Below are positions 1,199 through 62,414 of a stretch of 64,000 nucleotides of DNA, piece after piece; the first letter of the stretch is position 1; each line of letters opens with the position of its first letter. The notes beneath the pieces are model-generated. The model worked only from the letters and a program-made list of their open reading frames with translations, was not told the origin of the DNA and ran no database searches. A program made the translations under genes and the position numbers. Source of the stretch: Dermatemys mawii (lineage: Eukaryota; Chordata; Testudines; Dermatemydidae); assembly GCA_007922305.1 (NCBI GenBank), contig ML677373.1, forward strand, positions 13,610,456 through 13,674,455. The letters are read 5' to 3'.

Positions 1199-1368
1199 CG
1201 CAGGTCAGAGCTGAGAAATCCGCCCTCAGGAGCCCAACGCTGCTGGAGGCCGCTGGCTGGAAGCAACGGAGCAGCTCCGCCTCGCTCACCAGCGGGCCCT
1301 TCTCTCGCACCCAGGCCCCGAGCCAGCGCAAAGAGCAGCCGCACACCAGGCTGTTAGAGCCCAGCTTG
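1199..1368 (-). CDS. PKD1-like exon 4: LRRCT domain
   Basis: A 170-nt exon with acceptor CCCACAG and donor G|GTGAGT, leaving phase 1. The protein begins KLGSNSLVCGCSLRWLGAW and carries further cysteines near LRCF and at the end (LTC|G), the usual LRRCT four-cysteine arrangement. From memory, human PKD1 exon 4 is also 170 nt and ends in the same phase at the same cysteine-glycine. Exon 5 was not found to the left within the window. Confidence 0.72.
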
Positions 1369-4300
1369 CTGTGGGAGGAGAGCGGAGGAAGGGGAGGACG
1401 GTGAGAAGCGGGGGGGGAGGGGGTCAGGGACCTCTAAACACCTCCCTCTGTGCAGAGAGCCCCACCCCCAAACTGGGAGAAATGCTCATGATACCAAAGC
1501 GGGGGGGCCACAAGGGAGGAGGGTCAGGGAGATACATGGATGGAGAGAGGAGGGACAGGGACGAATACACCCAACGCAGGGTGACAGGAGAAACAGAGCC
1601 ATGCGGAGAGTGGGTCTGAGGGAAGGCACCTAACCGTACAGCAACTGCAGTCTGCCCAGGTGGCGGAAGGCTCCTTCCTCTATGGTGCGAATACGGTTGT
1701 GGCTCAAGTCCCTGCCAAGGAGAGACCAGAGAGGAGACCCAGGTGAGGGCGGGGAGCTCCGGGCCCAGATTCACTCTCAGGAGGGAGCAGCTGGAGAGCT
1801 CGGGGCCGGCACACAGCAGGCAGTGAGCGGCCGCAGAACTCAAGAGAAGCATGGCTCCTGGATCGTGCCACCGCCCACCACAGCCTTTATTAGGGGCTCC
1901 ACCCTGCCCAGCTGCAGACGCTGGTACCATCAGCCTCGTGGGCTGTTGAGCCTCTGGGCTGAGAATGCGGCCGGTGGGGAGTCAAACCTGCGAGGCCCTT
2001 TCTTGCCACCAAAATCAGTCTGTGAACCGAGTGACGCAAGCTGATGGGGAAGAGCTTGGAGCTCTGGCTAGGGAGTTACTCACAGCAATTGGAGGCTGGG
2101 GTATCCCGCCAGCTCCTCCGCTCGGATTCTGCTCAGGTGGTTGTGGGACAGGTCCCTGCATTGAAAGCAAAAAATTATTTGCACCCAGCACAGGCCCTCG
2201 CACTGCTCCATAGTGATGACTGGCTGTACCAAACATTCACAGGGAAACCCCTCACCCAAGACGCCCCACGCTCTAATAGAGTAAGCACCAGGCGGGGCAT
2301 TGGGATGTTGCGGGGGGTGGGGAGCGGGTGGTCTGATTACTGTTCTGCCACTGACTTGCCGTGAGGCCTTGGGCAGGTCATTTAATTTGACTGTGCCTCT
2401 GTTTTCTGACTGGGGACTAAGAAACCTGCCCTGGATTCTCTGCAACCGCCACATAGAGACGAGGAGGCTGGGGTGCCTGCTCTGGGTTCTCCAGGATGCT
2501 GGGCCCACATTTTAATCAGATCCAGAGGCCACCCCATGAAGGGAACCTTGGGAATGTGCTTCACTATCCTCAACGCGTGTTTGCTTCTGCCGTGAGCTCC
2601 CAGGCTCTGCCAGATTCCTCACCGATGTGTTGGGCAGGGGCAGCAAGGATGAGGCTGCTTATTAAAACTAACCAGCTAAGCCGCAATAAAGTCAACATTC
2701 CTTTGCAGCAAACATCCACCCCCTGCTGCTGGGAGACTCTTCCCTCAGGATCCACAAGGAGAATGTAGGGGGTGGGGAAGAGCCGTGGTTATACTGGGAG
2801 GAAATTTAACTAATTAAAACTCCTCACCATTCAAGTCATCAGGCCCCAGGTACTTGCAGTCGCTGCCATAGGGCCCTTTGGGGGTCTCTCTCTCTGGGGG
2901 TCCCGGCAGTGGCACCAACCAGGTTCCGCTGAGAGGAGGCAGGGGCCAGCATGTTACTGGGCTTGTACTGGAGCATGCTGGGAGGATACAGACTAGCAAT
3001 ATTCAGACCTGGGTCTCCAACAAGCCCTAGTCCGGGGGGAAGATCTGAACTGTTGGTTTGGCCCATTATAAGGAGGAGCCGTTTGCACAGTCTGGCTTCA
3101 GACATCAAATCCCACAACCCCGCACTTTGGGGATGCTTGGATCTAGGGTTTGGATCGCCTGGGCAGCCCTGGTTATAGGCTGCACTGGAAGGAGTTTTAA
3201 TGGGAAACCCCCTTGAGGCAGGAGGGGAGCTCACACTATAAGGGCATTCGGTGAGGTGAGGCCTACTCGACTGGGTGGAGAGGAACTCTCTGAAAGGACC
3301 ATCTCCAAGCCAGGGGATTGCAGGTCTGCCCAGCCACCACCTGCAAGGTGACGGTAACCCGGGCTGCCCAGGCGACCAGCCCAAGTCTACCGCAGCCAGC
3401 AAGGATCCGAACAGCCTATTCTGTTGTCCCAGGAGACAGCTTTGTGCCTGCAAACTGTGGGGGATCAGGCTCGTTGCCATGGTGATGGATAGACATGAAG
3501 AGATAAATATCGTTTTATGGGTTTCGTCCCGCCACGCTGACAGTGCCGAAGGAGCCAATGAGTCTGGAGGGCCATTGGCTGGAGCTCCTTAGGGATGCCT
3601 GCCACAGAACCGTCTTTTCTGACAGGGCCCCCTAGAGGCCCTAACCTTCTCCATGAAAGCCCTTTTCTAAACCAGCTCCTCCCTTCCCTTCAGCCACTGG
3701 AGGCAGGAAGTGCTACATCCTGGTAAGAAATAAAGAAATGCTCCAGCCTCCTGTAGTACCTGTACATCAGGACATGTTAGGGAAGGCTCACAACCCTTCC
3801 CCAGGGACGTATATAGCATTCAGGGAAACTGAGGCACAGAGCAGTTAAGTGACTTGCCTCAAGCGAGGCAGTAGCTGAGTGAACCTGGCTCTTGTCCAGC
3901 AGTTTGGGGCTCAGACTAGGCCACGCTCCCTGCTTTAACTTAAGGACCATCCTCCTCCCAAAATCACCCTGCCTTTGAGGTTGGTCGGCCACCTAATATG
4001 CATCCACGAGGGCAGGGTCTCTCAGGCTGGGGAACTGACTGAGCCACTCACAGCCGCTGACTTGGGCCTGTCTGCTGAAAAAATAAATTGATCTGGAAAG
4101 CGGTTTCATTGGCAACGACGTCAACGAAAGCCACGTGCCCAGCTAGCTGACTGCGGCAGCCCCTGCCCTCCAGAGAGCGGGCAATGAGAACTGTGATCAA
4201 AACCAATGCGGTCGCCAACCTGCCCAGCATGGGGACGCCAGTCGTGCTGCTCACTTTCAACTGGTGTCATTAATGGGGGTTCTGGGTCCTTGGGACGCTG

Positions 4301-61600: not shown

Positions 61601-62414
61601 TCAGGCAATCCACAAACCCGCCTGAGAACCTACCCTGTGCGTCGCGGTAGTAGGCGTGGGTCACACTACGAAATCGCTCCTGCCCCGCTGTGTCCCAGAT
61701 CTGCAAAGAAACAGCGCCGGTGAAATTCAAGGGAGAAACCCCACTGCCACTCGTCTCATTCCCAGCTCTCCAATCCCAGGTGCGGGTTGGCGTCAGGGCA
61801 TAACTGAAGGTAATGAACCAAGACCTCAGAGTCGGTGCAAAGGCTGGAAGCACTCAAAGGACCCACTGCTTGTATATGCTGCTCCTTATGTAGGAGGGGA
61901 TTTCTAGGTTATAAAAATAAAGAGATTTGGAGCTCTGGGTTAAATTATATATAAGGTCCAAGCAAGACTTCAGGCTGCGAGTTGCCAAAGTTATATGGGG
62001 CAAATGCATGGAAGGCTGGTAAAAACTAAGCCTTTGTCTCTGGTCTTTATGAAGGGGTGGTTTTAAAGGTGTTGTATATTGTACCATATCATACCCAGAA
62101 CAGTCTTTGCACCCCTGCAAGGGCTCACGTGTCCTTGAGAAATGTCCATACCAACAGCTATCAAACGCTGACTGGCTGTGCACTGTCAGTGCAAGAGTTA
62201 AGCTGGGAGAGAATAGATCAGCTTCCCTTCCGCTCCCCCCAAGCCTTATTAGGGAGTGTGTACACATGGCAAAGAATAGATAAAAGCCACAGAGAAACCG
62301 CCTGTTCGTACAGACACCCTCAGACAAAGTATTAACTGCACATGCAGCATCCAGATCAATTACCGGACTCACCTGTAATTTTACTTTCACCCCGTCCACT
62401 GCCACGACTTTATT
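55519..62414 (-). CDS. RAB37: Rab GTPase RAB37, 3' eight exons (5' end beyond right edge)
   Basis: Exons 62373-62414, 61634-61700, 61433-61485, 59656-59721, 58720-58776, 57515-57591 and 55519-55624 give 155 C-terminal residues without a stop (seven exons visible; the rest lie to the right). Visible motifs are WDTAGQE (switch II, G3), GNKAD across an exon junction (G4), ETSAK (G5) and the C-terminal SSCCSFM, whose paired cysteines would be geranylgeranylated. RAB37 acts in regulated secretion from mast cells and other secretory cells. The tail IESQKKKSSCCSFM and NKVVAVDGVKVKLQ identify RAB37 against its close paralogue RAB26, which ends differently. The P-loop (G1) and switch I exons are absent from 62415-64000. 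Introns are all GT-AG. Confidence 0.94.
56413..56994. mobile_element. hAT-like element (CATAGGCGCCGAC end), 582 bp
   Basis: The left end is CATAGGCGCCGACTTTAGTT and the right end is AGAGTTGGTGCCTTTG. The perfect 8-bp duplication CTTTACAC lies at 56405-56412 and 56995-57002. The interior is a G/C-rich region with near-inverted blocks (GGGAGGGAGGGGGGAGAAG and its reverse). It codes for nothing recognised. Confidence 0.88.
57255..57370 (-). repeat. MIR-like SINE core
   Basis: Reverse MIR: GGAGGCTAAGCAGCTTGCCC, then ACACAGTGAGTGCATAG, and the head-side CTCTAACCACTAGACAACAC. Confidence 0.65.
57515..57591 (-). CDS. RAB37: RAB37 exon: ETSAK motif
   Basis: EYGVPFMETSAKTGMNVELA followed by FLAIA and two bases of a lysine codon. 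Acceptor CTGCAG, donor GTGAGT. Confidence 0.96.
57592..58719 (-). other. RAB37: RAB37 intron between ETSAK and NKAD exons
   Basis: Holds the GC-rich 31-bp tandem repeat with an assembly gap (58331-58470). Otherwise no feature. Confidence 0.8.
58331..58470. repeat. 31-bp GC-rich tandem repeat with 10-N gap
   Basis: The unit begins CCCAGAGGCGCCGGGGCTCC and recurs at 58331, 58362, 58388, 58419 and 58450, the last one partly diverged. Ten N (58378-58387) interrupt the second unit. The real number of units is unknown. Confidence 0.95.
58720..58776 (-). CDS. RAB37: RAB37 exon: AD of NKAD and following loop
   Basis: 19 codons, ADLSTERVIRMEDGESLAR, which completes NKAD. Acceptor TTACAG, donor GTGAGC. 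Confidence 0.95.
58777..59655 (-). other. RAB37: RAB37 intron (splitting NK|AD)
   Basis: An 879-bp intron between the exons that together encode the NKAD motif. No repeat or gene recognised. Confidence 0.8.
59656..59721 (-). CDS. RAB37: RAB37 exon: helix and NK motif
   Basis: 22 codons, AWLTEIHEYAQKDVVIMLL then GNK, the first part of the guanine-specificity motif. Acceptor TTGCAG, donor GTGAGT. Confidence 0.96.
59722..61432 (-). other. RAB37: RAB37 intron
   Basis: A 1.7-kb intron. Contains the mini inverted-repeat element at 61023-61151; otherwise unremarkable. Confidence 0.8.
61023..61151. mobile_element. Miniature inverted-repeat element (TAGGGTGACCAGA ends)
   Basis: TAGGGTGACCAGATGTCCCA at the left and TGTCTGGTCACCCTA at the right. 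The internal TATAAGGACAGTCCCGATTT and GGGGTCTTTTTCTTATATAG are shared with the copy at 48245. Confidence 0.85.
61433..61485 (-). CDS. RAB37: RAB37 exon: strand after switch II
   Basis: The split alanine, then LLLFYDITSQMSFDNIR. Human has LLLLYDIT. Acceptor TTCCAG, donor GTCAGT. Confidence 0.94.
61634..61700 (-). CDS. RAB37: RAB37 exon: switch II
   Basis: IWDTAGQERFRSVTHAYYRD, then AQ and one base of an alanine codon. Acceptor TTTGCAG, donor GTAGGT. Confidence 0.96.
61701..62372 (-). other. RAB37: RAB37 intron
   Basis: A 672-bp intron. Nothing recognised; an open frame reading through it from the neighbouring exon is intronic. Confidence 0.75.
62373..62414 (-). CDS. RAB37: RAB37 exon: interswitch strand
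   Basis: 14 codons, NKVVAVDGVKVKLQ, with acceptor TTACAG and donor GTGAGT. First RAB37 exon visible in the window. Confidence 0.92.

What the first reader, a model, noticed from the sequence alone, without database searches (positions are those of the whole stretch)
1199..62414. A polycystin-1-like gene next to NHERF1 and RAB37: probable ohnologue of PKD1 retained in this lineage
The sequence shows a gene with LRRNT, two LRRs and LRRCT on the same strand as, and 8 kb beyond, NHERF1, with RAB37 on the other side. In human, NHERF2, PKD1 and RAB26 lie close together at 16p13.3, and their paralogues NHERF1 and RAB37 lie at 17q25; I know of no PKD1 relative there. The trio here looks like the second copy of that block, keeping a PKD1 member that mammals appear to have lost. 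Protein-level differences (tails SNL and CCSFM, CMEGKQH) show this is the NHERF1/RAB37 locus and not the NHERF2/RAB26 locus.
Basis: partly seen in the sequence, partly recalled or inferred. Interest (0 to 1): 0.87.

Follow-up and report, generated by a model that had tools for sequence, protein, structure and literature searches.

The report
Turtle second copy of polycystin-1
This genome, whose proteins group with those of turtles, carries beside NHERF1 and RAB37 an intact second copy of the kidney-disease gene PKD1, which likely dates from the early vertebrate genome duplications, is predicted to make a polycystin-1-type receptor-channel subunit, and was apparently lost in mammals and birds.

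Summary
The finding holds. The LRR exons at window 1199-5509 (-) are the 5' end of an open 47-exon, 4553-residue PKD1-type gene; 43 exons lie left of the window. The protein has LRR, PKD repeats, C-type lectin, REJ, a GPS motif, PLAT, polycystin and channel domains; WSC scores below cut-off. A separate PKD1 lies on contig C59 with RAB26, TSC2, NHERF2 and a Caskin gene; C51 holds this gene with RAB37, NHERF1 and the other Caskin gene. Trees put PKD1 and this gene in two clades, each with sharks, gar, amphibians and reptiles. So it is the orthologue of fish pkd1b and, by inference, a 2R ohnologue of PKD1. It already stands in databases as 'polycystin-1-like', and pkd1b of fishes is published. 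New, as far as my searches show, are the gene block and survival in amphibians, turtles, crocodilians and lizards; [quoted passage not shown] I saw no bird or mammal copy among the hits listed. Likely mechanism (inferred): a self-cleaved, non-canonical pore subunit that pairs with polycystin-2, as polycystin-1 does.

The parts
5016..5509 (-). PKD1B exon 1: start codon, signal peptide (by eye), LRRNT
   Evidence: (spliced model on Chrysemys P0001)
2084..2155 (-). PKD1B exon 2: LRR
1640..1711 (-). PKD1B exon 3: LRR
1199..1368 (-). PKD1B exon 4: LRRCT; exons 5-47 lie left of the window, C51:13610142 down to C51:13556583
13596..46483 (-). NHERF1 (stop at 13596; PDZ2 pieces near 21292 and 24348; PDZ1 match 46148-46453; start counted by hand)
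55519..62420 (-). RAB37 exons 3' of the first (C-terminal CCSFM and stop at 55519-55536); a first exon lies beyond the window's right end

Best explanation
This is an intact PKD1B gene, the orthologue of fish pkd1b, likely a 2R ohnologue of PKD1, and its protein is predicted to work as a polycystin-1-type receptor and non-canonical channel subunit. Shown: full-length open gene, domain order, tree position, separate PKD1 block. Inferred: the long N-terminus (LRR, PKD repeats, lectin, REJ) would be exposed outside the cell; the protein would cut itself at the conserved HL|T site in front of the first membrane helix; the 11-helix part would join three polycystin-2-type subunits through its channel domain and C-terminal coiled coil, placing basic residues (R at human 4100 and 4111) in the pore path as polycystin-1 does. 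Its role would be parallel to PKD1 and partly redundant with it, as published for zebrafish pkd1a and pkd1b.
For: Model: 47 exons, 4553 aa, no internal stop, 89.9% identity over 4543 positions to Chrysemys polycystin-1-like; 45 GT-AG and 1 GC-AG introns, as the aligner demands. Pfam, run on the first 4284-aa model: LRR, PKD, Lectin_C, REJ, PLAT, Polycystin_dom, PKD_channel over cut-off. HLT cleavage motif in 28 of 28 PKD1B and 19 of 19 PKD1 rows. Best solved relative human polycystin-1, E 2.9e-226 over 1211 residues, against 3.3e-26 for polycystin-2 and 1.3e-21 for PKD1L3 (first model). Tree: two clades, split support 99 (48 rows), 98/99 (42 rows) and 99 (47 rows, final model, no human row), each with chondrichthyans, gar, amphibians and reptiles. 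Paralogous blocks in one genome: C59 Caskin, RAB26, PKD1, TSC2, NHERF2; C51 Caskin, PKD1B, NHERF1, RAB37. Introns: 4 of 4 PKD1 introns that the script read in the loci held agree in phase with the nearest PKD1B intron, 0-4 alignment columns away. Pore: R at 4100 in 19 of 19 PKD1 and 20 of 28 PKD1B rows; R, H or K at 4111 in 15 of 19 and 27 of 28; this gene has R at both (human numbering shifted by one so that R, R, H fall on the published positions). Zebrafish double knock-down is worse than either alone (PMC10932423, passages).
Against: WSC scores 21.6 bits against a cut-off of 27.8. R at 4100 is missing in 8 of 28 PKD1B rows. Human R4107 is L here, but 18 of 19 PKD1 rows, human being the exception, also lack a basic residue there. 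No expression, cleavage or PC2-binding data. The zebrafish redundancy rests on morpholinos, and pkd1b knock-down alone showed no phenotype. The root rests on one long outgroup row (PKDREJ); the PKD1B branch itself has 90/97; no lamprey sequence was used, so 2R timing is inferred. NHERF1 lies 5' of PKD1B, whereas NHERF2 lies 3' of PKD1, so gene order inside the block differs. On C51 the Caskin match is about 0.85 Mb from PKD1B.
Confidence: 0.87

Rival explanations
1. It is a recent, lineage-specific copy of PKD1 (or a translocated PKD1).
For: Same domain order as PKD1 and agreeing intron phases.
Against: 35-36% identical to the four turtle PKD1 rows over the whole protein, but 48-49% to elephant shark and sevengill shark pkd1b and 76-90% to the six turtle PKD1B rows. 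A separate PKD1 beside TSC2 exists. Trees exclude it.
Confidence: 0.01
2. It is a PKD1-family gene of another named kind (PKD1L1, PKD1L2, PKD1L3, PKDREJ).
For: These share REJ, PLAT and channel domains (recalled).
Against: LRR plus C-type lectin plus a long PKD-repeat exon is the PKD1 plan; the single-exon frame on C28, which I take as PKDREJ, was used as the outgroup; PKD1L3 scores far below polycystin-1. PKD1L1, PKD1L2 and PKD1L3 were not put in the tree.
Confidence: 0.02
3. The gene is an ohnologue but no longer acts as a PC1-type channel subunit; only its adhesion part is under constraint.
For: Many anuran entries and a few fish entries lack the Pfam Polycystin_dom call, and the 2017 zebrafish paper reports a stickleback pkd1b without the channel domain.
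Against: In this gene Polycystin_dom and PKD_channel score over cut-off, and the PLAT-channel part is as close to Chrysemys (88.3%) as the whole protein (89.1%) (first model).
Confidence: 0.1

Closest known systems
pkd1b of zebrafish, pufferfish, stickleback, spotted gar, elephant shark (England et al. 2017, PMC5318412, passages seen)
   Same: Same clade in the trees as gar P0046, elephant shark P0032, shark P0035 and teleosts; same domain plan.
   Different: [quoted passage not shown] here it is intact in a reptile and sits in the NHERF1/RAB37 block.
'polycystin-1-like' gene models of turtles, caecilians, salamanders, frogs and others (database names)
   Same: Orthologues in the tree; cluster P0001 (Chrysemys, 61 members) is 89.9% identical over 4543 positions.
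   Different: Named by similarity only; the names do not say that it is a separate ohnologue with its own locus.
PKD1 / polycystin-1
   Same: Domain order, GPS site, R at 4100, the 4 intron phases tested, 34-36% identity overall.
   Different: Other contig, between RAB26 and TSC2; a clade of its own; present in birds and human, where I saw no PKD1B among the listed hits.

Membership tests
Polycystin-1 (PKD1) family | N-terminal LRRs with a signal peptide | tested here: met
   LRR_8 54 bits over cut-off 27; hydrophobic start aligned to Chrysemys N-terminus; signal peptide judged by eye
Polycystin-1 (PKD1) family | WSC domain | tested here: inconclusive
   21.6 bits, cut-off 27.8
Polycystin-1 (PKD1) family | PKD repeats, C-type lectin and REJ | tested here: met
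   PKD 3 and 13 stretches in two overlapping pieces, Lectin_C 64 bits, REJ 274.6 bits (first model)
Polycystin-1 (PKD1) family | GPS cleavage motif HL|T before the first membrane helix | tested here: met
   HLT in 47 of 47 rows incl. this gene; cleavage itself not tested; no Pfam GPS call was returned
Polycystin-1 (PKD1) family | PLAT plus polycystin and channel domains | tested here: met
   PLAT 78, Polycystin_dom 84, PKD_channel 103 bits (first model); human PC1 best PDB match
Polycystin-1 (PKD1) family | 1:3 assembly with polycystin-2 | not testable with these tools
   needs biochemistry
pkd1b orthologue group | Groups with fish and shark pkd1b, apart from PKD1 | tested here: met
2R ohnologue of PKD1 | Duplication older than the jawed-vertebrate radiation | tested here: met
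   both clades hold chondrichthyans and bony vertebrates; one long outgroup row
2R ohnologue of PKD1 | Paralogous neighbours on two separate chromosomes | tested here: met
   RAB26/RAB37, NHERF2/NHERF1, Caskin/Caskin, PKD1/PKD1B on contigs C59/C51
2R ohnologue of PKD1 | Same block in other vertebrates and timing against cyclostomes | not testable with these tools
   no other vertebrate genomes to read here

The most novel reading that the evidence does not exclude
The jawed-vertebrate ancestor had two polycystin-1 receptors from the genome duplications. PKD1B kept a partly redundant anti-cystic and flow-sensing role and was lost independently in mammals and in birds, so that PKD1 in these animals, humans included, stands without the backup that turtles, crocodilians, amphibians and many fishes still have.
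Probability: 0.3. Interest if true: 0.8.

Novelty: new member of a known kind. Interest (0 to 1): 0.58.

Why it matters
England et al. already argued that pkd1b is no teleost duplicate; the paralogous block and the tree here date it as a likely 2R ohnologue and show that it survived in tetrapods. That gives a natural experiment for polycystic kidney disease: animals with and without a second polycystin-1. Dosage sensitivity of PKD1 and its possible buffering by PKD1B become testable in amphibians and reptiles.

Tried and rejected
A notebook line that put the stop after NCNA is wrong. Recent duplicate and translocated PKD1 rejected. The idea that human R4107 marks a PKD1/PKD1B difference was rejected: 18 of 19 PKD1 rows lack it too. 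AXIN and iRhom pairs as further tests of the block (PF08833, PF12595) and a whole-family count (PF20519) did not complete. No structure was predicted, since the sequence match to solved polycystin-1 was judged enough.
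Full report
What is there. The window is C51:13610456-13674455 of a 1.81 Gb genome. Polycystin channel exons (2 of 20 matches) and REJ exons (2 of 7) lie left of the window on the minus strand of the same contig, in line with the LRR exons at window 1199-5509. The final model has 47 exons and 4553 residues from an ATG at window 5509 to two stops at C51:13556583, with no internal stop. It has 45 GT-AG introns and one GC-AG; the aligner admits no other kind, so this is no independent test. 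It is 89.9% identical to Chrysemys 'polycystin-1-like' isoform X1 over 4543 positions, with 8 and 10 gap letters. Exon 16 is 3656 nt and holds most PKD repeats; human PKD1 exon 15 is of like size (recalled). Scans and the first two trees used the earlier 4284-residue model, which differs in 10 of 47 exons.

Domains. Pfam finds LRR, PKD, C-type lectin, REJ, PLAT, Polycystin_dom and PKD_channel over cut-off and WSC below cut-off. The HLT cleavage triplet is kept in 28 of 28 PKD1B and 19 of 19 PKD1 rows.

A separate PKD1. REJ and channel exons of a second gene lie at C59:3158882-3204114, plus strand. Seven of seven tuberin matches, that is TSC2, lie at C59:3235209-3240857, minus strand. The NHERF1 PDZ1 query has 16 matches: 2 in NHERF1 itself and 3 at C59:3282409-3364021, which I take as NHERF2; the other 11 lie elsewhere. 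The RAB37 query has 102 matches, most in other Rab genes; 4 of them, 73-88% identical and in gene order, lie at C59:2886929-3039169, which I take as RAB26. The Caskin tail domain has 4 matches, 2 at C59:2.82 Mb and 2 at C51:12.76 Mb. So two contigs carry the same four gene pairs: Caskin, RAB26/RAB37, NHERF2/NHERF1, PKD1/PKD1B. The script read four PKD1 introns in the loci held; 4 of 4 match the phase of the nearest PKD1B intron, 0-4 alignment columns away.

Tree. The protein database returned named relatives (254 hits, 120 listed, only the 1736 candidates sharing most words scored; PKD1 set 433 hits, 120 listed). A tree of 48 rows, cut to GPS-channel, gives a PKD1B clade of 28 and a PKD1 clade of 19, split support 99; a slower mixture-model tree of 42 rows gives 98/99 for the split, 90/97 on the PKD1B side; a third with the final model and without the typed human row gives 99 (47 rows). 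In both clades the chondrichthyans branch first and reptiles lie inside tetrapods; the coelacanth and the long-branched frogs in the PKD1B clade do not sit where the species tree has them. Identity says the same: this protein is 76-90% identical to six turtle PKD1B rows, 70-74% to two crocodilians, 63% to a lizard, 55-61% to salamanders and caecilians, 39-42% to three frogs, 52% to coelacanth, 48-49% to elephant shark and sevengill shark, 39-49% to seven ray-finned fishes, and 34-36% to all 19 PKD1 rows.

Distribution. Among the 120 listed hits I see four birds (P0095, P0099, P0105, P0108), all at 39% and named PKD1 or polycystin-1, and no mammal; a bird or mammal PKD1B would be expected well above that. 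Because short models are out of reach of that search, I searched with a 457-residue GPS-PLAT piece (25 hits): gecko (80%) and monitor lizard (68%) fragments fit PKD1B; one bird (51%) and the mammals (33-55%, named polycystin-1-like, NPIP, PLAT domain-containing or hypothetical) I take as PKD1 or its pseudogenes, not tested by tree; seven hits have no source name. This is absence from capped lists of one database, not proof of loss. Lineage of the genome: PKD1 exon 15 on C59 is nearest to Terrapene, Gopherus and Mauremys (91-92%), then Caretta (90%), side-necked Emydura (86%), Pelodiscus and Carettochelys (84%) and Pelusios (83%), so a hidden-necked turtle is likely.

What is known. England et al. 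2017 (PMC5318412; [quoted passage not shown] PMC10932423 (passages) reports that zebrafish pkd1a and pkd1b act redundantly by morpholino. Seven searches listed no paper that, by title or abstract start, reports pkd1b in tetrapods or its NHERF1/RAB37 neighbourhood; most listed papers were not opened, and subscription papers and preprints are not in that library. Human gene order at 16p13.3 and 17q25 is recalled.

Mechanism. By homology the protein would be a self-cleaved receptor whose 11-helix part joins PKD2-type subunits. In human polycystin-1, R4100, R4107 and H4111 block the pore (PMC12183636, abstract). This gene has R at the first and third positions. Position 4107 is basic only in the human row among 19 PKD1 rows, so its loss here is no difference. 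R4100 is missing in 8 of 28 PKD1B rows. Cleavage, assembly, expression and redundancy of the turtle protein are untested.

Noticed in passing
L018 (C51:13688826-13688936, about 14.4 kb right of the window) and C51:13676723-13676839: Two alternative first coding exons of RAB37 appear conserved: one reads VMLLGDSGVGKTCFL, the other ILVGDSGVGKTSLLVQF, like two human RAB37 isoforms (recalled).
   Followed up: partly
proteins P0050, P0053, P0056, P0066, P0068, P0069 (anurans): These frog PKD1B-like entries lack the Pfam Polycystin_dom call, and the three frogs put in the tree share a long branch, so the gene may be changing function in anurans.
   Followed up: no
C28:32375695-32381592: What I take as PKDREJ is a single open frame of 2715 residues in this genome.
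   Followed up: no
window 16330-16463, 56690-56823; 28871-29000, 51450-51579; 44634-44754, 48245-48365, 61024-61150: Short interspersed repeats, 80-86% alike, recur in non-coding DNA of the window.
   Followed up: no
PKD1 position 4107 (human numbering): Of the three reported pore-plug residues, R4107 is basic in human only among 19 PKD1 rows; the others have a hydrophobic residue.
   Followed up: partly
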